Positions 9,069-23,084 of a stretch of DNA of 64,000 bases are shown in pieces. Below the pieces are notes generated by a model, which had not been told where the DNA came from, did no database searches, and worked only from the letters and a program-made list of their open reading frames with translations. The DNA comes from Pectinatus frisingensis (lineage in GTDB: Bacteria > Bacillota > Negativicutes > Selenomonadales > Selenomonadaceae). The stretch lies in NCBI RefSeq assembly GCF_015732285.1, contig NZ_WIQU01000032.1, forward strand, positions 62,626-126,625, read 5' to 3'. The position numbers and the translations under genes are program-made. Every line of letters begins with the position of its first letter. Positions within the stretch are counted from its first letter, which is position 1.

Positions 9069-9464
9069 TTACTTCCTCCCTGTATATTTAAATTACCTTT
9101 TGTGTGGTTAGATTTTCCATAGCTTTGATCATAATGAATTGCCTGGCCGTATAGGAATATTGCTATGGAACTGTCTTAAATAATTATATCAGATGTATTT
9201 TATACTTCAAGTTTGTAATTTTTGAAGAATTTATAAAAAATGTGTTTGAAAGATTTCTTATCATTTAAAATTGGCAGTCATTAGTTATACTAAGAATTTT
9301 TATTTTCACGTACATAGCTATTTCATTTATACACTGGGAAATAATAAAGATATATGCATAATAGTAAAATTTGCTGTTTTTAACTTGGCGTTATTCTGAT
9401 TGACATATTTTATTATACATATTACTATATATTTTAAGGTATTTAAATATATAGAGGTATAAAT
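9069..9464. other. 396-bp divergent intergenic region
   Basis: It separates the radical SAM gene (minus) from the HTH gene (plus). It is very AT-rich. Only the promoter and motif at 9400-9457 could be recognised, close to the HTH gene. Nothing else coding or structured was seen. Confidence 0.5.
9400..9457 (+). promoter_or_regulatory. Promoter and putative autoregulatory site of the HTH gene
   Basis: TTGACA (9400-9405), a 17-base spacer and TACTAT (9423-9428) form a vegetative promoter. Just after the -10 lies AAGGTATTTAAA (9436-9447), the same word found in the decamer array at 10031-10080. An RBS (AGAGGT, 9452-9457) follows. Location at the expected transcription start suggests a repressor site. 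Confidence 0.6.
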
Positions 9465-9956
9465 ATGAGATTTTTAACACCGGAGCAAGTGGCTGATTTA
9501 TTGCAGGTAGATTCTAATACGATATTGTTGTGGCTCAAACAAAAAAAAATACCAGGTGTCAGAATTGGCAATATTTGGCGTATAGAAGAAGAAAGATTGC
9601 AAACTTTCTTAACACAGAAACTTGACAAGCAGACAGAAAAATCTTCTTCCTATGAAGAGTATGAAGAGAATTTTGAGCGGGCAATTACACGGGGGCGTCG
9701 TGGCAGAAAACCTACGGGTAAATATGACGGTCTCAAAAATTTTTTAAAAAGTAATAAAGGTATAATTCTACATATGAGCTTTGCAGAAGTACAAGATTAT
9801 GTGGAGGATAAATTACCGCAATCAGCATATCGGCTACGGCCATGGTGGGCAAATGATTATTCACATTCTCAGGCAAGGGCATGGCTTCACGCCGGCTGGC
9901 AGACAAAAAGTGTTGATTTAAAAAAGCATAAGGTTACATTTGAAAAACGTAAATAA
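9465..9956 (+). CDS. Excisionase-type HTH protein, candidate cas-locus regulator
   Basis: A 163-residue protein. Residues 1-50 (FLTPEQVADLLQVDSNTI, then IPGVRIGNIWRIEEERL) are a MerR/excisionase-type winged HTH. After a charged linker with RRGRRGRKPTG, residues about 88-160 form a separate domain with SAYRLRPWWANDYSHSQARA and WLHAGWQT. This is a widespread small domain of unknown role (I recall it as DUF7662-like, not certain). The gene has its own promoter and terminator and precedes the csm operon. Its promoter shares AAGGTATTTAAA with the array in front of the next transcript, so it may repress itself and the small ORF/cas operon. An alternative is an unrelated passenger DNA-binding protein. 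Confidence 0.8.
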   Translation: MRFLTPEQVADLLQVDSNTILLWLKQKKIPGVRIGNIWRIEEERLQTFLTQKLDKQTEKSSSYEEYEENFERAITRGRRGRKPTGKYDGLKNFLKSNKGIILHMSFAEVQDYVEDKLPQSAYRLRPWWANDYSHSQARAWLHAGWQTKSVDLKKHKVTFEKRK

Positions 9957-9987
9957 AAACCAGGCAGATTCTAATCCTGGTTTTTTT
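9956..9987 (+). terminator. Intrinsic terminator after HTH gene
   Basis: AAAACCAGG (9956-9964), an 11-base loop and CCTGGTTTTTTT (9976-9987) form a hairpin with a T7 run directly at the stop codon of the HTH gene. The following cas transcript therefore needs its own promoter. Confidence 0.85.
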
Positions 9988-9993
9988 ATGCTC

Positions 9994-10021
9994 TTGACAA
10001 AAGTGGAAATATTGTTATAAT
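9994..10021 (+). promoter_or_regulatory. Strong vegetative promoter before small ORF and csm operon
   Basis: TTGACA (9994-9999), a 16-base spacer and TATAAT (10016-10021) both match consensus exactly. The predicted start near 10028 falls just before the decamer array. Confidence 0.8.
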
Positions 10022-10030
10022 TAGATATAA

Positions 10031-10080
10031 TTTAAAAGTATTTAAAGGTATTTAAAAGTATTTAAAGGTATTTTAAATAA
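10031..10080. repeat. Tandem decamer array (iteron-like operator)
   Basis: Four head-to-tail copies of TTTAAA(A/G)GTA at 10031-10070, alternating A and G, followed by a partial TTTTAAATAA. The 10-bp period puts every copy on the same face of the helix. The G-type copies create AAGGTATTTAAA (10045-10056), identical to the site in the HTH gene's promoter. The array begins a few bases after the predicted transcription start, where bound protein would block transcription. Confidence 0.75.
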
Positions 10081-10092
10081 AGGAGATTTATA

Positions 10093-10218
10093 ATGGAGAT
10101 GAATTATTTATCAATGCGTGACAGACGCAGACGTAAAAATAAGTATGCACCGGTAATCCAGGGATTGCCACTAGGATTTAGTAGAAATTACTGGCAAACC
10201 CGTAAAAAAAAACAATAA
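10093..10218 (+). CDS. 41-residue basic small protein
   Basis: Reading from the ATG at 10093 gives 41 residues with a strongly basic character: MRDRRRRKNKY in the N-terminal half and a TRKKKQ tail, around a central APVIQGLPLGFSRNYW. AAAGGAG (10078-10084) lies eight bases upstream, and the frame follows a consensus promoter and operator array. These signals make a real small gene likely. I do not recognise a family. A nucleic-acid-binding role fits the charge, but function is unknown. It is the first gene of the transcript that could continue into csm1, 132 bases downstream, with no terminator seen between. Confidence 0.6.
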   Translation: MEMNYLSMRDRRRRKNKYAPVIQGLPLGFSRNYWQTRKKKQ

Positions 10219-10350
10219 TTAAAATAAAATTGTGATATAATTATTTTAATTGCTGAACTTTTCTCATAAATCAGTACAAGTTCGGATATTTAGGTATAAT
10301 GGTTTTATAGAAGGGGTATAGAAAAAGAGAGAGAGGGAAGATTATTGATA

Positions 10351-12987
10351 ATGCAAGAGAAAATGGTGAATAAAATTTCACTAGCAGCACTTCTTCATGA
10401 TATTGGTAAAATTGTTTATAGGGCTGACAATACCCATATAAATCATTCTGTGTTAGGTAAAAATTTGCTGGAAAAATACTGTACAGATAAAGATATTTTA
10501 CAGGCAGTCGCTTATCATCATGAAAAAACATTAGTTAAGGCACGTATAGCTGAGAATCACATAGCTTATATAATATATGAGGCAGATAATATTGCTGCTG
10601 GTGCGGATAGACGGGAAGAAACTGACGGTGAATATGGATTTGATAAATATAGTCCATTGGAAAGTATTTTTAATCAATTGAATGGTAAATGTTCCGATAG
10701 TGAAAAATGTTACCATAGATTACGTGGTTTAGATCAAACTGAAAAAATTAATTATGGAATACCGATATGGCAGCAAAATATAAAAGCTGCCAGGGATAAG
10801 TATGAGAAGTTACTTTCTTATATGGAAAATAACTTCAAAAAATTGGCTAAGGAAAATAGTAAGGATGGATTTATTTCTGTAGAACCGGCACAATTACTTA
10901 AAATAATGGAAGATATTTGTTCTTACATGCCATCCAGTACAAAAGTTTCACAAGCCTGTGATGTATCTTTATATGACCATGTAAAGTTAACAGCAGCCAT
11001 TGCTAATGCGATGTATCTTTATTTTGTCGATAATAATATAATTGACTATAAAAAAGCTTGTTTTAGTAAACAAAATAAGATATATCGGCAAAAAAATATG
11101 TTTTTACTGGTATCTGGAGATATGTCCGGGATACAGGATTTTATCTATACTATATCGAGTGCTGGTGCATTGAAATCACTGCGGGGACGTTCGTTTTATC
11201 TGGATATGATCCTTGAATATATTGTCGATGAAGTATTGGGAACATTGGAACTTAACCGTTGTAATCTAATTTATACTGGTGGTGGGCATTTTTATTTATT
11301 GGCACCAAATACACAAAACGTGAAAGACAAGTTGAAACAATTCAAAAACAAATGTAATGAGTGGTTTTTGCGAAAAACAGGAACGTCTTTATATTTGGAA
11401 ATGGGATATCAGGAATGCAGCGCGGTAAATTTCATGGTGCCAGAAAGTAATAGAAATGCGGATGGTGATTATGAACAGATCGGTGAGATATTCCGGATAT
11501 TGAGCAATAAGCTCAGCCAGCAAAAATTGTGTCGCTATAATCAAGAACAATTATCAGCAATGTTTGATCCGGCAAGCAATATAAATAGAACACGTGACGG
11601 CAGCAGGGAATGTGGTGTATGCCATACTTCATCAGTAGATAAATTAGATGAGTTTCATGGTAAACATGATGGAAATACGCAAGCCTGTAATCTGTGTAAT
11701 AAATTATATGATTTTGGCAAAAAAATTATATCTGATAAAAATATTTTTGCTGTAATAGAAAGTGCAGAGGGGCTGCCACTGCCTTCATTGGATGGACATG
11801 AGTACAGCTTATTATCGATGGATAAGGACGGTCTGCTGAAATTTTACAATGGCAGTAATATTAAGCGTTTGTATACAAAAAATGCGGCTGAAACAGGTAA
11901 ATTATTATCTACCAATTTGTGGGTAGGAGATTATATTACTCATATATTGCAGCAGGAAAACTCCAAAGACGAAAAAACAGCCGATTTTGAATACCTGGCA
12001 GGGCAAAGCCGTGGTATTAAACGCCTGGGTGTACTTCGTGCTGATGTAGACAGACTTGGACAAACGTTTGCTACAGCATTTAGTGATGAAAATGGAGCGC
12101 ATTACTTGACACTATCGCGTATGGCATCATTATCTAGGCAGATGTCAATGTTTTTTAAAAAGTATATAAATTCTATATGTGCCGGACGTATAGAGGGTGA
12201 AAATGAACAGGAAAAACCAATTTTTTCTTTGTGGAATAATAAAAAGCAGGCAAGAAAATTAGTTATTGTTTATTCAGGCGGAGATGACGTTTTTGTAGTT
12301 GGCGCATGGGATGAAGTATTGGAATTTGCTGTAGATTTATACCAGTCATTACAGCGCTTTACTAATGGAAAGATAACATTATCAGCAGGGATGGCGATGC
12401 TTGAACACAAGTATCCGATCAGTCAGATGGCGAACATTGCCGGCCAGATGGAATCCATAGCTAAAGATAGCGGCCGTAACCGTATTGCATTGCTGGACAT
12501 GCAGGAAAAAATGCAAACAAATGGGGAAGATAATAAAAATAAACAGGTAGTTCATTGCTATGAATGGCAAACATTTATAAATGAAGTTGCCGGTGAAAAA
12601 TTACAGTTTTTAATTAAATATTTCTTATTTAATACAGAACAGACGAATGCGGATGAAACGCCTATAGGAAAAGGACATTTAGCAATTGGTAAAGGGCAGC
12701 TTTACAGACTGGTAGAATTTATACGCAGAAAAATTAATATCAGCGATCAAGATCAGAATACGCCTAAACGTATGAATATAGTACGATTTATTTATTGGCT
12801 GGCAAGGCTGGAACCTGACAAAAAAAATGAATCAGCATATGCAGATTATCAGGAAGTAAGAGGAAAACTATATGACTGGTTGGTAAAAGATGATTTACAA
12901 GACAGCAGACAGTTGTTAACAGCGATATTTCTGGTGATATATGGTATCCGTGATAAAAATGATGTAAAAGATATGATAGATGAATAA
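10351..12987 (+). CDS. csm1: Type III-A CRISPR Cas10/Csm1
   Basis: The 878-residue large subunit of the Csm complex. An N-terminal HD nuclease domain is intact (LLHDIGK, His16-Asp17; then HSVLGKNLL and YHHE). Next come a Palm domain, a zinc-binding region (CGVC ... CNLC) and the second Palm with YSGGDDVFV, GGDD at 643-646. HD cuts single-stranded DNA, and GGDD makes cyclic oligoadenylates from ATP when target RNA is bound. Both motifs being present suggests both activities. An upstream in-frame TTG at 10345 exists, but AGGGAAG (10334-10340) fits the ATG at 10351 better. It is the first cas gene of a nine-gene operon. Confidence 0.95.
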   Translation: MQEKMVNKISLAALLHDIGKIVYRADNTHINHSVLGKNLLEKYCTDKDILQAVAYHHEKTLVKARIAENHIAYIIYEADNIAAGADRREETDGEYGFDKYSPLESIFNQLNGKCSDSEKCYHRLRGLDQTEKINYGIPIWQQNIKAARDKYEKLLSYMENNFKKLAKENSKDGFISVEPAQLLKIMEDICSYMPSSTKVSQACDVSLYDHVKLTAAIANAMYLYFVDNNIIDYKKACFSKQNKIYRQKNMFLLVSGDMSGIQDFIYTISSAGALKSLRGRSFYLDMILEYIVDEVLGTLELNRCNLIYTGGGHFYLLAPNTQNVKDKLKQFKNKCNEWFLRKTGTSLYLEMGYQECSAVNFMVPESNRNADGDYEQIGEIFRILSNKLSQQKLCRYNQEQLSAMFDPASNINRTRDGSRECGVCHTSSVDKLDEFHGKHDGNTQACNLCNKLYDFGKKIISDKNIFAVIESAEGLPLPSLDGHEYSLLSMDKDGLLKFYNGSNIKRLYTKNAAETGKLLSTNLWVGDYITHILQQENSKDEKTADFEYLAGQSRGIKRLGVLRADVDRLGQTFATAFSDENGAHYLTLSRMASLSRQMSMFFKKYINSICAGRIEGENEQEKPIFSLWNNKKQARKLVIVYSGGDDVFVVGAWDEVLEFAVDLYQSLQRFTNGKITLSAGMAMLEHKYPISQMANIAGQMESIAKDSGRNRIALLDMQEKMQTNGEDNKNKQVVHCYEWQTFINEVAGEKLQFLIKYFLFNTEQTNADETPIGKGHLAIGKGQLYRLVEFIRRKINISDQDQNTPKRMNIVRFIYWLARLEPDKKNESAYADYQEVRGKLYDWLVKDDLQDSRQLLTAIFLVIYGIRDKNDVKDMIDE

Positions 12988-13011
12988 TAAAAAATGATGG
13001 AGGTGGATAAA

Positions 13012-13416
13012 ATGGCACAAAGTATATTAGATGAAGCTAAAAAATTATATGCAGAAGCAATAGATTTAAAAGGTGGCAGAGATGATTTAACTACATCACA
13101 ATTACGTAAATTTTTAAACGATGTTGTGAAAATTAGTAACCGTGTAGAAATTTTGCGGTCAAAACGTATACAGACAAAAGGCGAATCTAATGAATTGCCG
13201 CAGGAACTGCAAAATTCCATAGAATTTCTTGATGTAAAACTTATGTATCAGGTGGGACGTAATAATGATAGAGGTGCACTGAGAAAATTTTATGAAAAAG
13301 GGGATATGGCTTCAAGAATCACACAGGCCAAAAAAGGTATTGCAGAGTACAGAAAATTTGCTGATTTGATGGAAGCGGTTGTGGCATTGCATAAATATCA
13401 TGGAGGTAAAGACTAA
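13012..13416 (+). CDS. csm2: Type III-A CRISPR small subunit Csm2
   Basis: A 134-residue, largely helical protein matching Csm2 in length and position between csm1 and csm3. Csm2 copies line the middle of the effector complex and contact crRNA and target RNA. GGAGGTGG at 12999-13006 supports the ATG at 13012 rather than the in-frame ATG at 12994. Csm2 sequences are poorly conserved, so the call rests partly on context. The stop overlaps the csm3 start (TAATG). Confidence 0.9.
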   Translation: MAQSILDEAKKLYAEAIDLKGGRDDLTTSQLRKFLNDVVKISNRVEILRSKRIQTKGESNELPQELQNSIEFLDVKLMYQVGRNNDRGALRKFYEKGDMASRITQAKKGIAEYRKFADLMEAVVALHKYHGGKD

Positions 13417-14114
13417 TGGCAGATAATGTAAGAACGTTACAGGCTAAGATAAGTATTACTGGTGGTCTTAAGATATTGACAGGACTGCATATTGGCGGTG
13501 GTGGCAACACTTCGGCAATTGGCGCGGTAGATAGTCCAGTTATAAGAGACCCGCTTTCAAAATGTCCGATTATTCCAGGCAGTTCATTAAAAGGTAAAAT
13601 GCGTACCTTGCTGGCAAAACTGTATGATGACAAAGATACTGGTGTACTTGGTAAACCTGATAATGATAATTATATAGTAAAACGTTTATTTGGTTCCAGT
13701 GATCCGATACAACCAGCACGACTACAGTTTTTTGATATTTTTTTGCAGGAAAAAAGCAAAAAAAGTATTGAAAAGCTTGATACTGATCTGTATCTTACCG
13801 AGGTTAAATTTGAAAATACGATAACCCGTACGACATCGCAGGCTAATCCACGCCAAATAGAACGGGTTCCAGCCGGAGCTGAGTTTGCTTTTAAACTTAT
13901 TTATAATCTAGAAAGAATAGATGAATATCAAGACGATATGTTGGCATTACACAATGCATTTATTTTGCTTAAGGACGATTATATTGGTGGACATGGTTCG
14001 CGCGGCTATGGCCGAGTGGAATTAATTAACATAAATGTTGCAGTACCGATAAAAAGAGATGATATAAATATTGATAAGGAGCAGATAGCAGGTATTTTAA
14101 AAGGTGGCAAATGA
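13416..14114 (+). CDS. csm3: Type III-A CRISPR backbone RNase Csm3
   Basis: A 232-residue RAMP protein that forms the backbone filament and cuts target RNA every six bases. The conserved stretch TGLHIGGGGNTSAIGAVDSP has Asp39 in the position of the catalytic Asp33 of Streptococcus thermophilus Csm3. PIIPGSSLKGKMRTLLAK follows. The glycine-rich loop GGHGSRGYGRV near the C-terminus is typical of RAMPs. The start ATG shares a base with the csm2 stop. Confidence 0.95.
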   Translation: MADNVRTLQAKISITGGLKILTGLHIGGGGNTSAIGAVDSPVIRDPLSKCPIIPGSSLKGKMRTLLAKLYDDKDTGVLGKPDNDNYIVKRLFGSSDPIQPARLQFFDIFLQEKSKKSIEKLDTDLYLTEVKFENTITRTTSQANPRQIERVPAGAEFAFKLIYNLERIDEYQDDMLALHNAFILLKDDYIGGHGSRGYGRVELININVAVPIKRDDINIDKEQIAGILKGGK

Positions 14115-14115
14115 C

Positions 14116-15123
14116 ATGAACTATAGCATATATAAATTATCCTTTACAGCACCTTGCCGATTTGGCCCATCAGCAGCAGGAGCCGGGCTTAACAAAAGTG
14201 ATATTGCCTGTCAGGCAGATACACTGTTTTCAGCACTTGCCAATGAATGTGCAGCATTTTATGGGACAGATAAATTACAAATTTTTAAAGATATGGTGCA
14301 GACAGGCGCACTATTAGTAAGTGATTTGCTGCCATATAAAGATGATACGCTGTTCCTGCCGAAGCCATTATGGGCTTTAGAACACAAGAGAGAAGAAGAA
14401 GAGTCCCTGAACACTATAAAAAGCCGTATGTCAGGAGCTAAAAAACTAAAAAAACTACAGTATATACCAGTATATGACTTTGAAAATTACATTGACTGCA
14501 TAAAAGAAGGCAAATCGTACATTACTGACAATAACAAAATTGAAAGTATAGATGATATATATGAAAAACAATTATTAGAACGGGTAAATTGCCGTGGTGA
14601 AGAAAATTTGCCATACTTTGTAGAACAGGTGGTATTTGCCGAAAAATGCGGACTGTATTTTATTATTGGCTATAATGATGAAAGTCAGAGTAAAGTTATA
14701 AATGAACTTGTCAAATTGTTGTCATATAGTGGAATCGGCGGCAAACGTAGCAGCGGTTATGGCAAATTTACTTATGAAGTTATAGATTTAGCAGCCCAGG
14801 ATGTTGGTGAAGATACAAGCACTTTGTATCAATTGCTGACAACTGGTAAGGGCAGCATATATATGAACATATCCGATCTTATTCCTGATAAAGATGAAAT
14901 TGCCGCACTTCTTGAAAGTTTTTATCGTTTAGTACCGCGCAGCGGTTTTGTCACAGATGGCGGGTATAAAGCCACACCGTTTAAACGTAACCGTTACTTT
15001 GCTATTATGCATGGCAGCTGTTTTAAAAAACCGCTTAAAGGCAGTATAATTGATGCCGGAAATGGTGGCAGTCATCCTGTATATAGATATGGTAAGGGAT
15101 TATATGTGAGGTTAGATTTATGA
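14116..15123 (+). CDS. csm4: Type III-A CRISPR RAMP Csm4
   Basis: A 335-residue RAMP that binds the 5' tag of crRNA and docks to Cas10. FGPSAAGAGLNKSDIACQAD and TLFSALANE are typical of Csm4 N-termini, and GIGGKRSSGYGKF is the glycine-rich RAMP loop. An in-frame GTG at 14104 overlaps csm3, but AAAGGTGG (14099-14106) is well spaced for the ATG at 14116. The stop codon overlaps the csm5 start (ATGA). Confidence 0.92.
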   Translation: MNYSIYKLSFTAPCRFGPSAAGAGLNKSDIACQADTLFSALANECAAFYGTDKLQIFKDMVQTGALLVSDLLPYKDDTLFLPKPLWALEHKREEEESLNTIKSRMSGAKKLKKLQYIPVYDFENYIDCIKEGKSYITDNNKIESIDDIYEKQLLERVNCRGEENLPYFVEQVVFAEKCGLYFIIGYNDESQSKVINELVKLLSYSGIGGKRSSGYGKFTYEVIDLAAQDVGEDTSTLYQLLTTGKGSIYMNISDLIPDKDEIAALLESFYRLVPRSGFVTDGGYKATPFKRNRYFAIMHGSCFKKPLKGSIIDAGNGGSHPVYRYGKGLYVRLDL

Positions 15124-16382
15124 AAAATTTTCTGGAAACAAAAAGACTGCGATTGGATTGTCTGACACCGATACATATAGGCAGTGGTAATAAACTCAAT
15201 AAAAATGAATATATTTTTGATAAAAATAATGGGGTAGTTTATTTATTGCAGCAAAATAAATGGCTGGAATTTTTATACAACTATGAACCAGAAAAGCCAA
15301 AACAGGAAATGAATGCGATACGCGTTAAAGGGTTTGAGGCATTAGCACAAGCTATGGGACGCAAAACAAAAGATTTTTTGCAGGAATATAAGAAATTCAT
15401 TATAAATAATGCAGGCAGTAAAAATCTCAAGTCATTATATCAATGGTGCAGAGATAATGATATAAAAATGTCCGCTGCAGCAAAATGTGCCCTCGCAAAA
15501 ACATATATAAACAGTGAAAAGAATGATCTGAGCGACATGATGCCTTTCATGCGGCATGCCGATGGCAGTATATATATTCCCGGCAGCAGTATAAAAGGGG
15601 CTGTCCGTACAGCACTATTATATGAAATGATTAAAAAAGCACCACAATATAATTCTTGGCAGCGTGAATTGAAAAATATAAATCCACATGATAAAAAAAC
15701 ATATGGGAAATTGGCGAAAACAATAGAGAAAGCCGTTTTTAATAAATATACTGGATTTGTTGACAATAAGGGTGTGGTGACTGATGCCAGAGCTGATATT
15801 ATGCGTGGACTGCGAATAGGTGATGCTGAATTATGTGATAAGGGTACCAAAACACAGATATACAGGAAATATGATATAAGCCTGCATAAAAATAAACAGG
15901 GTGAATCAGTAAGGAGATTGCCATTATATAGGGAATGTGCACCAAGCGGCAGCAGCTTTGAATTTGCTGTTACATTGGAGAAACAATTTTTACAAGGTAC
16001 AGGAATTGATTCAATAGAAGATGTTTTTAAGATAACAAACTCATATGCAGCTGAAATAATCAGCATGGAAAAAAGTGTATTTGATCAGTATGGTGAATAT
16101 TGGAATGGCAAGGAAAACATGGCCAACATTATTATTGGCGGAGGAACGGGATTTTTGACAAAAACAATTATCTATGCACTTTTACCACGACAAGAAGCAG
16201 TTAATGTCGTAAAGAATTATCTTGATAGTTCTTTTACCACCTATGACAGAAAAGCACATGGACGTGTTCCGGCACATAATCATAAAATACTTGATACAAA
16301 ATTGTCACCGCGTACGCTGAAAGTTGCTGGTGATGTGAATAAAATGTATCATATGGGGTTGGGACAGATAATAATAAATTAG
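15120..16382 (+). CDS. csm5: Type III-A CRISPR RAMP Csm5
   Basis: A 420-residue RAMP that caps the 3' end of the Csm filament and takes part in crRNA maturation. Recognisable segments are LDCLTPIHIGSGNKL at the N-terminus, IPGSSIKGAVRTALLYEM in the middle and IIGGGTGFLTKTI near the end. It is at the long end for Csm5. It begins inside the last codons of csm4 and is followed by cas6 after 13 bases. Confidence 0.92.
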   Translation: MKNFLETKRLRLDCLTPIHIGSGNKLNKNEYIFDKNNGVVYLLQQNKWLEFLYNYEPEKPKQEMNAIRVKGFEALAQAMGRKTKDFLQEYKKFIINNAGSKNLKSLYQWCRDNDIKMSAAAKCALAKTYINSEKNDLSDMMPFMRHADGSIYIPGSSIKGAVRTALLYEMIKKAPQYNSWQRELKNINPHDKKTYGKLAKTIEKAVFNKYTGFVDNKGVVTDARADIMRGLRIGDAELCDKGTKTQIYRKYDISLHKNKQGESVRRLPLYRECAPSGSSFEFAVTLEKQFLQGTGIDSIEDVFKITNSYAAEIISMEKSVFDQYGEYWNGKENMANIIIGGGTGFLTKTIIYALLPRQEAVNVVKNYLDSSFTTYDRKAHGRVPAHNHKILDTKLSPRTLKVAGDVNKMYHMGLGQIIIN

Positions 16383-16395
16383 AAAGCAGATTTAT

Positions 16396-17190
16396 ATGAT
16401 AAAGCAATATGCATTTTATATTACACCACTGGATAATAATGAACGGATACATTTTAATATGGGTTCAATAATGCACGGATTTTTGATGGAATCACTGCCA
16501 CCGACAACAGTGCAACATTTGCATAGCACTGATGCCAGACCATACAGCCAGCACATACAAATGGAAAACAATATAGGAATATGGCAGATAAATGCTTTAA
16601 GCGATGACATTATAGGTTATATTGACGGCTTAATTAAAGATTGGGACGGACGGGATATTTATTTAAAGCAGCGTGATAAAAAATATCATTTACAGCTTTT
16701 TTATGTATCATCGCAGTATTCTTATCAGAAATTCAGTAAGTACTTTTTTACAGAGGCTGAACCGAGCCGCAATCTTAACGTACAATTTGCGACACCTACT
16801 TCTTTTAAAGTATATGGCAAGTATCAGATATTTCCTGACATCAGGCTTATATTGTCAAGCATCTGCAAAAGATGGAATGCTTTATCTGACAGTGTAGTGT
16901 TTGATGATGAACAGGCACTTACTGATATATGCAGTAGTACTTTTATAAAAAACTATCATTTGTCATCAATGAGATTTGCCTTGGAAAAAGTAAAAATAAC
17001 TGGCTTTGGCGGTAATATAGAAATCATGCTAACAGGGCCGGATATGACTGCACGCTGGATAAATATGCTTATGGCTTATGGACAGTTTTGTGGTATAGGC
17101 ATCAAGACTGCCCTTGGAATGGGTGCCGTTAAAGTGCAAAAAAAAGTATATAAAGCTGATAACATAGCGTATGTGGAAATGATAAATTAA
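16396..17190 (+). CDS. cas6: CRISPR pre-crRNA endoribonuclease Cas6
   Basis: A 264-residue Cas6. The N-terminal MGSIMHGFLM contains a candidate catalytic histidine (His27). The C-terminal glycine-rich loop FCGIGIKTALGMGAVKV is the family hallmark. Cas6 cuts the repeat RNA below its hairpin and leaves an eight-base 5' tag, here predicted as ACGAAAAC. Its position between csm5 and csm6 completes a self-sufficient type III-A operon. Confidence 0.92.
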   Translation: MIKQYAFYITPLDNNERIHFNMGSIMHGFLMESLPPTTVQHLHSTDARPYSQHIQMENNIGIWQINALSDDIIGYIDGLIKDWDGRDIYLKQRDKKYHLQLFYVSSQYSYQKFSKYFFTEAEPSRNLNVQFATPTSFKVYGKYQIFPDIRLILSSICKRWNALSDSVVFDDEQALTDICSSTFIKNYHLSSMRFALEKVKITGFGGNIEIMLTGPDMTARWINMLMAYGQFCGIGIKTALGMGAVKVQKKVYKADNIAYVEMIN

Positions 17191-17230
17191 ATAATATACG
17201 AAGAGGAGCTGTATTATTATAAAAGAATGT

Positions 17231-18544
17231 GTGCTTTTTTCACCGGTTGGCAGTACTGATCCGATAAGAGATGACTTTGACGGACCTATGCTGCATATAG
17301 TAAGATATTACAAGCCTAAGAAAGTATACTTGTTTTTTACTGCAGAAATGGCAAAACGTGACTACAAGGATAACATATATGAATGGACGTTGCAGCAACT
17401 TGACCCGGCAATGCAGATAGGAAAAATTTATCATGAAGATATAACTGATCCGCAAATTATGGATAAATTTGATAAATATTATCCAAAAGACATAGAAAAA
17501 ATATATAAAGAAAATCCTGACTGCCAGATAATTGTCAATGTTACCTCGGGAACTGCCCAAATGATGACTTCAATACGTATTTTTGCAGCACAGGCAGATT
17601 TCCCGATAAAGCTTATAGCTGTGGATACTCCAGCAAAAAAATCTAATCATAGTAAGCCTGTAGATGATAATTATGATAAGCTGCTTAGCTGGGAAAATAA
17701 TTTTGATAATGAAATAGATAATGCAGATGTTGTTTGCCGATGTAAGGAGATTAAGCACGACAATATAAAAAAAGCAATAATCAAAAGTATCATAGAAAAA
17801 TATATAGAAGTATATGACTACAAAGGTGCACTTATGGCTTTGCAGCAGGCACCTGGCTTTTTCAGTAGACAGCTGGGAACAATACTGCAGGGAGCCGATT
17901 ACCGTCTCCATTTAGAACATAATAAAGCACAGATAAGTTTTAATAATACAAATGTGGAATATAAGGATGTATATCCGGTACAGGCTAGCGATTGCCGTGA
18001 TATATTTGAGTACATACTGCATTTACAAAAACTAGGTGAAAGAGAATATTTACTTGAATTTGCCCAGGGATTTTCACCATTACTATTCAGATTGAGTTAT
18101 TCTTTTTTGAAAAAAATATTGAAAGTTCCCATAGATGAATATATACGAATTGATAAAAAACATGTGAAACATTATGATGAAGTAAAATTGCCTGATAAAT
18201 ATAAAACTGAATTGATAAAAGAATTTCATATAATAAATTATAAAACACCGCTTAATACAGCAAATCTTTTACCAATAATTGCATATGAAGCAGTACAGCA
18301 AAAAAAATTCGATGGTTATGAAAAAATAAACCGGCTCAGAAAATTTGAGGAAAGTGTACGGAATATTGCTGCCCATGAAATAAGTGCTATTTCAAAAGAA
18401 ACCTTTAAACGTGATGCGGAAACAACATGGGAAAAAATTATTACGGATTTTAAATCTTTATATCAAATAATATTTCATGGAACTGTTGATTGGGATAGCT
18501 ATGATGCCATGAATGAAAAAATAATGCAATATCTCAGATTATAA
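17231..18544 (+). CDS. csm6: CRISPR ancillary RNase Csm6 (CARF-HEPN)
   Basis: A protein of at least 437 residues. The N-terminal CARF domain, which senses cyclic oligoadenylate, begins LFSPVGSTDPIRDDFDGP and has VNVTSGTAQMMTS. The C-terminal HEPN ribonuclease domain has RNIAAH, an R-x4-H active site. Activated Csm6 cuts RNA without sequence specificity. The start is unusual: the GTG at 17231 is 22 bases past the only good RBS (GAGGAG, 17203-17208). The reading frame continues upstream as IIKECVLFSPVG to ATT codons at 17213 and 17216, which are well spaced from that RBS. A non-ATG start, possibly ATT, is therefore likely. Confidence 0.9.
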   Translation: MLFSPVGSTDPIRDDFDGPMLHIVRYYKPKKVYLFFTAEMAKRDYKDNIYEWTLQQLDPAMQIGKIYHEDITDPQIMDKFDKYYPKDIEKIYKENPDCQIIVNVTSGTAQMMTSIRIFAAQADFPIKLIAVDTPAKKSNHSKPVDDNYDKLLSWENNFDNEIDNADVVCRCKEIKHDNIKKAIIKSIIEKYIEVYDYKGALMALQQAPGFFSRQLGTILQGADYRLHLEHNKAQISFNNTNVEYKDVYPVQASDCRDIFEYILHLQKLGEREYLLEFAQGFSPLLFRLSYSFLKKILKVPIDEYIRIDKKHVKHYDEVKLPDKYKTELIKEFHIINYKTPLNTANLLPIIAYEAVQQKKFDGYEKINRLRKFEESVRNIAAHEISAISKETFKRDAETTWEKIITDFKSLYQIIFHGTVDWDSYDAMNEKIMQYLRL

Positions 18545-18568
18545 AAAGTAAAATCAGGAGATGTTATA

Positions 18569-19567
18569 ATGAGCTTTGCCTATATTACAGAAGATGGGGC
18601 TCGGATACAGAAAAAGGGCAATAAATTTATCATTGGCAGAAATTTAGAAACAATAATGGAAATACCAGCAGAAATACTGGAAGGATTAGTACTTATTGAA
18701 GATGTACAAGTATCTTCACAGGCAATAGTCGAATTGTTAAAACGAGGTATACCTGTCACATGGATATCATCTATTGGCAAGTTTTTTGGAAGATTAGAAT
18801 CTACTCAGCATGTAAATGTATTTAAACAAAAACAGCAAATGTTGCTGCAAGATTTACCATTTTCATTGGAATTAGGTAAAAAAATTATATTTGCCAAGGT
18901 CCATAATCAAATTATAGTGCTGCGCCGCTATAACCGTCGAATGCAATTAGAAAATATTAGTAGAATAATAAGAAATATTTTAGCGACAAGAAAAAATATT
19001 AATTCAGCAAAAACAAAAGAACAACTTATGGGTTATGAAGGGATAATCGCCCGACTTTATTTTGAAGCACTGGGGGAAATTGTTCCTGAAGAATTTGCTT
19101 TCACAAAAAGAAGTAAGCAACCACCGATTGATCCTTTTAATTCGATGATTAGCTTTGGCTATACACTTGTAATGTATGAAATATATACAGCTATCGTTAA
19201 TCAGGGACTTCATCCCTATTTTGGTTTTCTACATGCACTTAAAAATCATCATCCGGCGCTTGCTTCTGATTTATTAGAAGAATGGCGGGCTGTTATTGTT
19301 GATTCTTTGGCATTAAATCTAATTAAGCATAAAGAAATAACACTGGATCATTTTCAGCCGCCTAGTGATGATAATAATGGCATTTATTTAACACGTGAAG
19401 GAAGAAATATATTTTTAAAAGCTTATGAGAGAAAAATGCGTACAATAAATAACTATCAGGATAGTAAAAAATCTTATCGGCATACATTAAATTATAGTGT
19501 ACAGGCCTATTCACAGGCATTAATGGATGAGAATGTAAATATTTATAAACCTATATTTATTCGATAA
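18569..19567 (+). CDS. cas1: CRISPR integrase Cas1
   Basis: A 332-residue metal-dependent integrase that joins new spacers to the array. The expected metal ligands are Glu157 (MGYEGI), His222 (GFLHAL) and Glu237 (SDLLEEWR). The N-terminal beta domain and helical C-terminal domain have full family length. CAGGAG upstream supports the ATG. It follows csm6 by 24 bases and precedes cas2, so adaptation and interference genes are in one cluster. No reverse transcriptase is fused or adjacent. Confidence 0.95.
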   Translation: MSFAYITEDGARIQKKGNKFIIGRNLETIMEIPAEILEGLVLIEDVQVSSQAIVELLKRGIPVTWISSIGKFFGRLESTQHVNVFKQKQQMLLQDLPFSLELGKKIIFAKVHNQIIVLRRYNRRMQLENISRIIRNILATRKNINSAKTKEQLMGYEGIIARLYFEALGEIVPEEFAFTKRSKQPPIDPFNSMISFGYTLVMYEIYTAIVNQGLHPYFGFLHALKNHHPALASDLLEEWRAVIVDSLALNLIKHKEITLDHFQPPSDDNNGIYLTREGRNIFLKAYERKMRTINNYQDSKKSYRHTLNYSVQAYSQALMDENVNIYKPIFIR

Positions 19568-19605
19568 AAGTATGCTATAATAAATAATTATGGTAGGCAA
19601 ATAAA

Positions 19606-19923
19606 ATGGATAATAATGCAGATGAAAATGAATTTGTTGCTATTGATGATAGACGCTATATAATACTGGCAATTTATGATATTGTCAACGATAAGCGCAG
19701 AAGTAAAATGGTCAAATGTCTTGAGGGGTTCGGAGTCCGAGTGCAAAAATCAGCTTTTGAAGCTTATTTGACGAAAAAAAGCTATGAAAAATTAATGAAT
19801 ACAGCAAGCCATATAATTGATATCAAAGAAGATTCGCTGCGTGTATATTTGCTTGCAAGTCATACTTCTGTGCGCTCATGGGGCAAGGGGCATGATCATG
19901 TTGAAGATGTTATAATATTTTAA
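19606..19923 (+). CDS. cas2: CRISPR adaptation protein Cas2
   Basis: A 105-residue Cas2 that bridges Cas1 dimers in the spacer integration complex. The first beta strand is IILAIYDIVNDKRRSK with the conserved Asp25. The N-terminus carries about 17 extra residues before it. The RBS is weak (GGTAGG) and a TATAAT-like element lies just upstream, so it may also have its own promoter. It ends 133 bases before the first repeat. Confidence 0.92.
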   Translation: MDNNADENEFVAIDDRRYIILAIYDIVNDKRRSKMVKCLEGFGVRVQKSAFEAYLTKKSYEKLMNTASHIIDIKEDSLRVYLLASHTSVRSWGKGHDHVEDVIIF

Positions 19924-20056: not shown

Positions 20057-21585
20057 AATAAAAACCATTAACCCCTGTAGGGGACGAAAACTATAATCGT
20101 GTTATCATTAAAAGTAAAGCTATTGACAACAATAAAAACCATTAACCCCTGTAGGGGACGAAAACAATCGACAAATATGCTTAATGTACCCTGCTAAATC
20201 ATAATAAAAACCATTAACCCCTGTAGGGGACGAAAACTTAAAAAATATAAAGGTGTTATTGAACACGGTTATCCAATAAAAACCATTAACCCCTGTAGGG
20301 GACGAAAACTATGCGCTTGCGAATGGAAGAAAGGAACGTAACAGAAGAAATAAAAACCATTAACCCCTGTAGGGGACGAAAACGTTATTACTCTCCTTCT
20401 TGCATTTTTTTGGATTTCTTAATAAAAACCATTAACCCCTGTAGGGGACGAAAACAACAAGGACACAACGTATAGCGTCAGTTTTTCCACAATAAAAACC
20501 ATTAACCCCTGTAGGGGACGAAAACTTAAAAATATTCATCTCTTTTTAAATTTACATTTTCTAATAAAAACCATTAACCCCTGTAGGGGACGAAAACTAC
20601 TTTAAACATTTAAAACGCTCCTTTAAATTGTTTTAAATAAAAACCATTAACCCCTGTAGGGGACGAAAACAACTTTTATAATAGTGGATACAGCTCCACC
20701 TATTAACAATAAAAACCATTAACCCCTGTAGGGGACGAAAACTCAGTTGTTTATCAACGATTATTGCAGATACAGTATAAATAAAAACCATTAACCCCTG
20801 TAGGGGACGAAAACGTCGTACAGTGCGTTGGTAGAAACAATGTTGCCGTAATAAAAACCATTAACCCCTGTAGGGGACGAAAACAAAAATATTTTTGAAA
20901 TTGCGGCAAATTGGCACGAAATAAAAACCATTAACCCCTGTAGGGGACGAAAACTATCTCCTGCTGTTGCGGCTCCCATATATCCTGCTGTAATAAAAAC
21001 CATTAACCCCTGTAGGGGACGAAAACTATCTGACAGTATTTCTCCTACTGCTTGCCAACCAGATTAATAAAAACCATTAACCTCTGTAGGGGACGAAAAC
21101 TAATTTTTTCTGTACATCCTTCTTCATCAATTTCCGTAATAAAAACCATTAACCCCTGTAGGGGACGAAAACAAGTCATTATTTTCACTGGCAATATTAT
21201 TTTTTAATAAAAACCATTAACCCCTGTAGGGGACGAAAACTTTTTAACAAAAAATACTTATAATTAGCATTTATGTCAATAAAAACCATTAACCCCTGTA
21301 GGGGACGAAAACTTCTAGGTCGATAACTTCAACATCGCCGAGGTATTCGTCGGCCAATAAAAACCATTAACCCCTGTAGGGGACGAAAACTTAGCTAACA
21401 TTTCGATGATGTTAGCTTTTAGCTCTTAATAAAAACCATTAACCCCTGTAGGGGACGAAAACATCTGACTCATTTCTAATTTTGTGCCTGCAATTCTTAA
21501 TAAAAACCATTACCCCCTGTAGGGGATGAAAACTCATATTCGGATCCGTCAGATCCCCAGCTTTCAATAATAAAAACCATTAACC
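20057..21585 (+). CRISPR. Type III-A CRISPR array, 21 full repeats plus a truncated one
   Basis: Repeat length is 35 bases: it opens AATAAAAACCATTAA and closes CCCCTGTAGGGGACGAAAAC. The centre CCCC-TGTA-GGGG can form a small hairpin, and the last eight bases ACGAAAAC fit a type III crRNA 5' tag. Full repeats begin at 20057, 20131, 20203, 20275, 20349, 20421, 20491, 20563, 20636, 20708, 20780, 20850, 20920, 20992, 21066, 21138, 21206, 21278, 21356, 21428 and 21499. The repeat at 21066 has one change and the one at 21499 has two. A final partial repeat (21569-21585) keeps only the first 17 bases. The 21 spacers are 33 to 43 bases. Short open frames across spacers are artefacts of the array. Confidence 0.98.
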
Positions 21586-21739: not shown

Positions 21740-22425
21740 ATGTCAGTTAAAACTAAAGCAACTCCTGAAGACAAGATTAAACTGGTGGAACAATATATGT
21801 CTGGAGAAATTAGCCAGCATGAGATCAGTCGAATTACTGGATTAATGGTCGCATCGATTCAGGATTGGATATGTAAATATAAAGCGGAAGGATCTGTTGT
21901 TTTCTTATCAACGAGTAAAAATCGGAAATATACGCCTGAACTTAAGGGGAAAGTGGTAAAAGAATATCTCTCTGGAAATGGGAGTTTATTAACGCTGTGT
22001 GAAAAATATAAAATTCGTTCCAAGACTCAAATCCTTCGTTGGATTAAGATGTATAATCGTCATGAAGAATGTACTCGTCTACTCATCGAGGAGGACATCG
22101 AAACATGACGAAAGCACGCAAAACCACGCAGGAAGAGCGAGTAATAATTGCTAAAGAGTGCCTTGCAACCGACAGAGATTATGGCGAAATTGCGGAAAAA
22201 TACCAGGTAACCTACCAGCAGGTTTATGCCTGGACAAATAAATTTGCTGAATTAGGGATATCTGGTGTGGAAGACCGGCGAGGCAAACGTATAAGCCAAC
22301 AAGAACCACGAACCGAAGAAGAAAGGCTCAAAATCAAACGGAAAATAAACGTATCGCACAGTTCATTGAAACGATACATAGGGAAACCCCGGATAAGGGT
22401 TGCCGGCGTATCCGGGATGACTTAG
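21740..22425 (+). pseudogene. IS3 OrfA, frameshifted
   Basis: Two overlapping frames together make one OrfA. The first (21740-22108) has the HTH ISQHEISRITGLMVASIQDW and a second HTH with GNGSLLTLCEKYKI. The second (about 22069-22425) continues with MTKARKTTQEERVIIAKECL and YQQVYAWTNKFAELGI. In intact relatives these form a single reading frame, so a frameshift lies near 22080-22095. The C-terminal coiled coil expected after EERLKIK is missing, pointing to a deletion near 22340. Confidence 0.75.
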
Positions 22426-23084
22426 CCCATGATTATAATACAAAGATAAATGACAAACGCGTGTTGAGAATATGTTGGCAACTTGCTATAAAATCAACGA
22501 TTAAATACAGCAATCATGGTTGTACCCGGCAAGCTGCTAAGCCACAGCATATAGCGGAAAATATTTTAAACCGTAACTTTAATGCCGATAAGCCGAATGA
22601 AAAATGGCTGACCGACGTGACAGAATTCAAGTATTATATAGGACCTGAAAAACACAAGGTTTATCTCAGCGCCATCCTAGATCTCTATGACCGCCGGATC
22701 GTTTCCTTCATCATACGTGATTACAACAACAACCAATTGGCATACGATACCTTTCATGCAGCCGTAACGGCCAATCCGTCAGTTTACCCGTTATTTCACA
22801 GCGACAGAGAATTTTCGTATACCAATCGAACATTTCATGGGATGCTTGTAAAAGCCGGGATGACGCAGAGCATGTCTCGGGAGGAAAATGCATTGATAAC
22901 GGCCCAATGGAAGGCTTTTGGGGGATTTTGAAGCGGGAACGGTATTATGAAACGTTTTATGGATAGAGAGTCTTTAATTAACATGATTAAACGTTATATA
23001 AATTATTACAACACGAAACGAGTACAACGAAATCTTGGTGTCTTGACTCCATGTGAAAAACATGAGATGTATTTAGCCGCATAA
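22344..23084 (+). pseudogene. IS3 OrfB (DDE transposase), frameshifted
   Basis: The frame from 22344 reads NKRIAQFIETIHRETPDKGC, then the rve integrase core with WLTDVTEF and LDLYDRR (the two Asp). It shifts frame near 22878-22890: the continuation CIDNGPMEGFWGILKRER, which carries the catalytic Glu, is in another frame. A further indel near 22948 is needed to reach FMDRESLINMIKRYINYY and the C-terminus NLGVLTPCEKHEMYLAA. The N-terminal part is missing. Transposition by this copy is not expected. Confidence 0.8.

What the first reader, a model, noticed from the sequence alone, without database searches (positions are those of the whole stretch)
9400..10218. A regulatory module in front of a type III-A locus: HTH gene, shared operator word, decamer array and a 41-codon basic ORF
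The promoter of the excisionase-type HTH gene and the promoter before the csm operon both carry AAGGTATTTAAA just after the -10. At the second promoter it is part of four phased 10-bp repeats at 10031-10070. A terminator separates the two transcripts. This predicts autorepression and repression of the cas transcript by the HTH protein. Dedicated transcriptional control of this design is not something I know from described type III-A systems.
Basis: partly seen in the sequence, partly recalled or inferred. Interest (0 to 1): 0.8.

Follow-up and report, generated by a model that had tools for sequence, protein, structure and literature searches.

The report
Candidate repressor before a CRISPR operon
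A small DNA-binding protein gene sits at the head of a bacterial CRISPR immune locus, and its own promoter and the next promoter towards the immune genes share a repeated DNA word, an arrangement also kept in one related species, which suggests that this immune system carries its own on/off switch.

Summary
In the window (genus Pectinatus, by its same-genus relative) a 163-aa protein, winged HTH (HTH_17) plus DUF7662, heads a type III-A module (cas10/csm1-csm5, cas6, csm6, cas1). AAGGTATTTAAA lies behind its -10 (9436-9447) and recurs in a 10-bp-periodic array (10030-10077) behind a perfect TTGACA/TATAAT promoter that leads to a 41-codon basic ORF and csm1. New here: Pectinatus brassicae keeps the HTH gene (68% identical), the small ORF and forms of the decamer word in both promoters, while the flanks held do not match. 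A third Pectinatus with csm lacks gene, ORF and word. The best structural matches of the HTH are BldC-DNA complexes, in which monomers bind direct repeats head to tail (no match reaches E 0.001). I favour a locus-encoded autorepressor that coats decamer repeats and shuts the cas transcript. Not shown: binding, repression, or that csm1 lacks another promoter. Locus-encoded CRISPR or defence regulators are known (CvkR, BrxR-type WYL), and an autoregulating repressor of a III-A system encoded elsewhere is known (CasR): new variant of a known kind. Only 2 of 26 Csm1 loci over cut-off in the family have it.

The parts
9400..9428 (+). promoter of the HTH gene (TTGACA-17-TACTAT)
   Evidence: consensus scan 10/12; P. 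brassicae has TTGACA-17-TAATAT at the same place
9436..9462 (+). operator candidate in the HTH promoter: AAGGTATTTAAA followed by TATATAGAGGTATAAA, which overlaps the ribosome-binding site
   Evidence: AGGTA..TAAATATATAGAGGTATAAA conserved in P. brassicae; the BLASTN match of the two loci starts at 9437
9465..9956 (+). HTH_17 (residues 3-51) + DUF7662 (87-160) protein, 163 aa, candidate repressor
   Evidence: Pfam over cut-off for both domains; ortholog 68% identical in P. brassicae; HTH part matches BldC-DNA complexes
9955..9987 (+). intrinsic terminator of the HTH transcript
   Evidence: stem-loop with T-run, z -3.4
9994..10021 (+). Pcas, perfect-consensus sigma-70-type promoter
   Evidence: 12/12; one of 49 such sites in the genome against 4 for the reversed control; the P. 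brassicae counterpart is also 12/12
10030..10077 (+). decamer array, operator candidate (four phased TTTAAA[AG]GTA plus an imperfect fifth)
   Evidence: paired decamers GGTACTTAAAGGTA and, inverted, GGTATTTAAAGGTT in the P. brassicae Pcas
10093..10218 (+). 41-codon basic ORF, first ORF behind Pcas
   Evidence: homolog between HTH gene and csm1 in P. brassicae, E 3.8e-7, 17 of 41 residues identical, 23/22/17 of 41 identical at codon positions 1/2/3
10345..12987 (+). cas10/csm1 (ATG at 10351 is the likelier start), head of the csm operon
   Evidence: TIGR02578 E 3e-216
12994..19923 (+). csm2, csm3, csm4, csm5, cas6, csm6, cas1; the 105-aa ORF at 19606-19923 is taken as cas2 by position only
   Evidence: Pfam and NCBIfam for the first seven; the last ORF was not searched

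Best explanation
The HTH-DUF7662 protein is a locus-encoded transcriptional repressor of this type III-A system. Its winged HTH is of the BldC/Xis/RdfS kind; monomers bind side by side, head to tail, one per helical turn, on the 10-bp direct repeats. In the window this coats the start of the Pcas transcript (about +3 to +50 if transcription starts near 10028), in P. brassicae the -35/-10 spacer and the start region, so RNA polymerase is kept off an otherwise very strong promoter or cannot leave it. A shorter site behind its own -10 gives negative autoregulation. DUF7662 most likely provides oligomer contacts, extra DNA contact or the inducing signal. Shown: genes, promoter-like sites, array, conservation in one other species, absence of all three together in a third. 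Inferred: DNA binding, filament, repression, read-through from Pcas into csm1, the inducer.
For: Both domains over Pfam cut-off. The only PDB sequence matches at E 1 or better with the single protein are the two BldC entries, weak (E 0.025 and 0.041); the first seven fold matches are chains of the same entries (prob 1.00, TM by target 0.74-0.85, rmsd 1.3-1.6 A over 50-51 columns), with phage Xis 4J2N at rank 9, RacA at 13 and RdfS at 25. BldC binds 9-bp direct repeats head to tail (PMC5859096, passages); RdfS oligomerises likewise and represses its own promoter (PMC11963761, passages). P. brassicae keeps HTH gene, small ORF, csm order and forms of the word in both promoters. A matrix made from window sites only, scanned over 20 kb of P. 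brassicae on both strands, puts ranks 1 and 4 in its Pcas. Window-derived GGTATTTAAAGGTA with at most 1 mismatch has 6 hits among the rows listed for the P. brassicae genome, 2 of them in that one promoter (counted). TATATAGAGGTAT is shared by PrHTH and Pcas (inverted) in P. brassicae, reached in 3 of 1000 shuffled pairs. HTH protein (68%) and Csm1 (69.9%) diverged to a similar extent. Perfect-consensus promoters need no activator (established knowledge), so repression is the likelier sign.
Against: No binding or expression data. Only two species carry the module, and the comparison rests on that one pair. BldC repeats are 9 bp, here 10. The fold match covers the HTH only, comes from a two-sequence alignment with mean pLDDT 61 and pTM 0.35, none of 702 matches has E at or below 0.001, and RepE replication initiators stand among the top rows. 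The Arg in BldC's recognition helix is aligned with Leu22 (that it is the base-reading Arg30 is inferred from the passages). The PrHTH site is not a decamer pair (GG-GG spacing 18) and its second half is also the ribosome-binding site; window-trained scores rank the PrHTH site of P. brassicae only 35th, and the window Pcas shares no unusual word with the P. brassicae PrHTH (10 letters, 146 of 1000 shuffles). Decamer pairs with one mismatch are at control level genome-wide (19 against 19 in 5 genomes). In P. brassicae one pair is inverted and sits in the promoter spacer. 126 nt (window) and 267 nt (P. brassicae) between small ORF and csm1 could hold another promoter, though only 9/12 matches were found at their edges.
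Confidence: 0.57

Rival explanations
1. The HTH protein regulates only the small-ORF transcript; csm1 is driven by its own promoter downstream of 10218, so the cas genes are not under its control.
For: The gap small ORF-csm1 is 126 nt here and 267 nt in P. brassicae, longer than the gaps within the csm operon; in P. brassicae a further 36-codon ORF precedes the small ORF.
Against: No promoter-like site above 9/12 in either gap and no terminator-like site on the + strand; the hairpin at 10213-10255 is nearly all A/T, with no T-run directly behind it (z -1.8).
Confidence: 0.15
2. The protein is an activator, or a MerR-like switch, of the cas transcript.
For: RdfS, a wHTH of the same fold, activates one promoter and represses its own; in P. 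brassicae an inverted decamer pair lies in the -35/-10 spacer, where classical MerR proteins bind.
Against: Both Pcas are 12/12 with normal spacers of 16 and 17 nt, and in the window the array lies downstream of the -10, where bound protein normally blocks.
Confidence: 0.1
3. The decamer array is bound by another host factor or is simply A/T-rich promoter and leader sequence; the HTH protein acts elsewhere.
For: The 12-letter word alone is reached in 29 of 1000 shuffles; single decamers are not enriched in the window; the window Pcas and the P. brassicae PrHTH share no unusual word.
Against: Periodicity reached in 0 of 2000 shuffles; forms of the word at both promoters in two species, and none within 2 mismatches of the decamer pair in 13 kb around csm of the congener without the HTH gene.
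Confidence: 0.13
4. The HTH gene is a recombination directionality factor or other leftover of a mobile element that carried the csm module.
For: HTH_17 is the excisionase fold; the flanks of the module do not match between the two species.
Against: I saw no integrase among the ORFs listed for 1-24000 (read by eye, most not searched against families); the fused DUF7662 and the matching promoter words fit regulation better; similar divergence to Csm1 indicates long co-residence.
Confidence: 0.05

Closest known systems
BldC (Streptomyces; PDB 6AMA, 6AMK)
   Same: wHTH fold; operator of tandem direct repeats with about one helical turn per unit
   Different: BldC is 68 aa, wHTH only, 9-bp repeats AATTXXXX(C); here a C-terminal DUF7662, 10-bp repeats, CRISPR locus
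RdfS and phage Xis (Pukovnik, 4J2N)
   Same: HTH_17 fold; RdfS forms head-to-tail oligomers and represses its own promoter
   Different: excision factors of mobile elements
CvkR, repressor of type V-K CAST
   Same: locus-encoded MerR-type repressor of CRISPR-type genes
   Different: homodimer, motif AnnACATnATGTnnT, type V-K transposon, own dimerisation and effector domains
CasR (Rv1776c) of M. tuberculosis
   Same: repressor of a type III-A cas cluster that also binds its own promoter
   Different: TetR family, 20-bp palindrome, csm6 promoter; its gene lies away from the cas cluster (judged from gene numbers)
BrxR-type WYL regulators, Sll7009 and Csa3
   Same: regulators encoded in or beside defence loci
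   Different: WYL or CARF domains, none detected here. WYL papers seen only as listing and abstract starts; Csa3 in passages; the role of Sll7009 is recalled

Membership tests
HTH_17 / excisionase-type wHTH | Pfam HTH_17 over gathering score | tested here: met
   44 bits against 27; TIGR01764 41.8 against 28.8
DUF7662 | Pfam DUF7662 over gathering score | tested here: met
   52.1 bits against 26
BldC family | NCBIfam HTH_BldC over cut-off | tested here: not met
   22.4 bits against 77
BldC family | wHTH fold of BldC | tested here: met
   Foldseek rows 1-7 are 6AMA/6AMK chains, prob 1.00, TMt 0.74-0.85, E 8.4e-3 to 3.6e-2; model pLDDT about 75 in this part
BldC family | binds direct repeats head to tail | tested here: inconclusive
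   10-bp direct repeats are present, BldC uses 9 bp; binding itself not testable with these tools
BldC family | wHTH domain only | tested here: not met
   DUF7662 at 87-160
CvkR family | operator AnnACATnATGTnnT in a V-K CAST | tested here: not met
   operator candidate is direct repeats TTTAAA[AG]GTA, locus is type III-A; CvkR motif itself not searched for
WYL or CARF (Csa3) defence regulators | WYL or CARF domain | tested here: not met
   no such Pfam match at E 0.1 in the 163-aa protein
type III-A CRISPR-Cas | Csm1-Csm5 with Cas6 and Csm6 | tested here: met
   NCBIfam matches over cut-off for csm1-5, cas6 (58.9 against 58.65), csm6, cas1

The most novel reading that the evidence does not exclude
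A CRISPR system governed by a BldC-type nucleoprotein filament whose fused DUF7662, a domain otherwise found alone or beside nuclease and, by my reading, alkyltransferase-like parts, senses foreign or damaged nucleic acid, so that infection strips the filament from the decamer array and induces a normally silent type III-A system, with the conserved 41-codon peptide made first as part of that switch.
Probability: 0.15. Interest if true: 0.8.

Novelty: new variant of a known kind. Interest (0 to 1): 0.5.

Why it matters
The regulators of type III-A systems that my searches turned up are host regulators encoded elsewhere. A repressor carried by the locus itself, with an operator candidate in two species and a natural congener without it, would make induction of a type III-A system directly testable and would give DUF7662 a first functional context.

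Tried and rejected
Rejected: excisionase or mobile-element remnant as main reading (no integrase seen, regulatory words conserved). Rejected: a widespread csm regulator. Of 26 Csm1 loci over the cut-off (four of them partial matches), tblastn with the HTH protein finds it only in G000 and G001 (next E 0.5); the DNA held upstream is about 1.3-1.5 kb (124 bp for G036, 935 bp for G025), and cas6, cas1/cas2 or genes that look unrelated stand there (read by eye). 46 of the 72 Csm1-matching genomes were below the cut-off and were not examined. Of 23 plasmid records with a Csm1 match I opened 6; none has such a gene annotated upstream of csm1, in tables that are incomplete; a TIGR03985 gene stands divergently near the one of Nostoc. 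Led nowhere: single-protein scans of genome and viral contigs (the first missed even P. brassicae, found with an alignment); viral scan for DUF7662; Rfam (only OrzO-P at 23.3 bits against a cut-off of 60); padloc and phrogs give HTH-only matches such as mad1; small ORF in plasmids; papers: DUF7662 0, locus regulator of type III-A 0 at 3 of 6 terms, 3 at 5 of 6 terms on locus-encoded repressors, Pectinatus with CRISPR 19, 10 listed, none on this by title, two searches on defence-locus HTH regulators. No paper was read whole: passages of PMC5859096, PMC9938897, PMC9953421, PMC10013973 and PMC11963761; the rest only listings and abstract starts. The matrix held one mis-registered row and was replaced; there the reverse scan (P. 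brassicae sites on the window, ranks 1 and 2 at 10045 and 9436) is partly circular because those sites were picked by eye, the forward scan is not. The C allowed in the pattern came from the P. brassicae sequence, so its exact match there is by construction; the count of 2 of 6 uses the window letters only.

Full report
What is there. At 9465-9956 a 163-aa protein carries HTH_17 (3-51) and DUF7662 (87-160), both over the Pfam cut-off. Downstream stand a terminator (9955-9987), a perfect TTGACA-16-TATAAT promoter (9994-10021), an array of 10-bp repeats (10030-10077), a 41-codon ORF with 12 Lys or Arg, then csm1-csm5, cas6, csm6 and cas1 and the CRISPR array (repeats within 20129-21534).

Is it more than chance. 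AAGGTATTTAAA occurs 3 times in the genome, twice here, once in what reads as a coding sequence. As the best shared word of two A/T-rich promoters it is only mildly unusual (29 of 1000 shuffled pairs reach 12), but the 10-bp periodicity is not reached in 2000 shuffles and has no equal in the window. Single near-matches to the decamer are at background.

Comparison. In P. brassicae the order HTH gene, small ORF, csm1 is kept. BLASTN at E 1e-5 between the window and 34 kb of P. brassicae aligns 9437-9944 and 10370-19492 of the window, then 19622-19923 and CRISPR repeats, and nothing in the flanks held: the HTH gene is the first gene of the conserved module and the match starts inside its promoter. 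The P. brassicae HTH promoter shares AGGTA..TAAATATATAGAGGTATAAA. Its Pcas is also a 12/12 promoter, with GGTACTTAAAGGTATAAA behind the -10 and, inverted, GGTATTTAAAGGTT in the spacer, the latter preceded on its strand by TATATAGAG, so that TATATAGAGGTAT is common to its two promoters (3 of 1000 shuffles). Not all pairs of promoters agree: the window Pcas and the P. brassicae HTH promoter share no unusual word (146 of 1000). GGTAYTTAAAGGTA with at most one mismatch gave 19 matches in 5 Pectinatus genomes and 19 for the reversed control, so the genome-wide number is background; but the one exact match and one more lie in the P. brassicae Pcas, and three lie in the window's array. A matrix from the five window sites ranks the P. 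brassicae Pcas sites 1 and 4 in 20 kb, its HTH-promoter site only 35.

Third species. G004 has csm1 but no DUF7662 match, no small ORF and nothing within 2 mismatches of the decamer pair in the 13 kb held around csm; its alignment to the window stops at csm1. In the Csm1 tree G001 and G004 are sisters (100/99) with G000 outside, so the simplest history is presence in the ancestor and loss in G004; two gains are not excluded. HTH protein and Csm1 show similar divergence between window and P. brassicae (68% and 69.9%).

Elsewhere. DUF7662 matches at E 0.001 were found in 4 of 189 family genomes, 6 of 380 class genomes and 18 of 398 phylum genomes; the sets overlap and include the own genome. Of the 25 loci so fetched I looked at the frame of each; only those of the window and of P. 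brassicae carry the HTH. In plasmids 24 records match, none over 80% of the protein, and in phages 3, all in the C-terminal half. Other partners of DUF7662 are GIY-YIG and HNH nucleases (plasmid annotation) and, by my reading of the letters, an acetyltransferase and alkyltransferase-like proteins, or none.

Mechanism. The best solved relatives by sequence (weak) and by fold are BldC-DNA complexes; phage Xis, RacA and RdfS follow among other rows. BldC monomers bind 9-bp direct repeats head to tail and RdfS represses its own promoter. Direct repeats at one per helical turn are what such a protein would read. A promoter that matches the consensus fully in both species, overlain by the repeats, points to repression rather than activation. 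Perfect promoters number 49 and 56 in the two genomes against 4 and 9 for the reversed control. These last steps are inference.

The small ORF. It is homologous between the two species (E 3.8e-7; next best of 100 relatives 0.0136). A two-row model searched in 379 class genomes also finds two copies in G286, of another family (E 1.2e-8 and 1.0e-7; the other matches are 0.007 or worse), each behind a ClpX-like gene with no csm gene in the 3 kb held (ClpX-like is my reading of the letters). So the peptide family is not CRISPR-specific; its role is unknown.

What is known. Regulators of type III-A include CasR of M. tuberculosis (passages) and SarA/ArcR, PigU and Rsm (titles and abstract starts). 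Locus-encoded repressors of CRISPR-type or defence genes include CvkR (passages) and WYL regulators (listing). I found no paper on an HTH_17-DUF7662 protein or a decamer operator at csm in the listings.

Verdict. A real, conserved, probably locus-specific control region; a new variant of a known kind, so far in two species.

Noticed in passing
L097:1408-1632 and L103:1411-1635 (G286): Two homologs of the 41-codon basic peptide, each directly behind a ClpX-like gene in what looks like a duplicated locus, with no csm gene in the 3 kb held.
   Followed up: partly
L015:10200-10310 (P. brassicae): A 36-codon ORF with a hydrophobic stretch is the first ORF behind Pcas there; I saw no counterpart in the window.
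   Followed up: no
L028 reversed (G004), 750-776 and 1087-1113, csm1 starting at 1489: Two copies of a 27-nt word beside hairpins stand where the HTH module would be, possibly traces of an insertion element linked to its loss.
   Followed up: no
window 21740-23084: IS3-like transposase pieces next to the far end of the CRISPR array (reading of the ORFs, not searched).
   Followed up: no
plasmid hits H9, H14, H15, H18; L054, L058, L061, L065, L068, L072: DUF7662 is found fused to GIY-YIG or HNH nucleases (annotation for the plasmid hits, my reading for L054, L058, L061), to an acetyltransferase (L065) and to alkyltransferase-like proteins (L068, L072), in bacteria and archaea, which hints at a nucleic-acid-related role.
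   Followed up: partly
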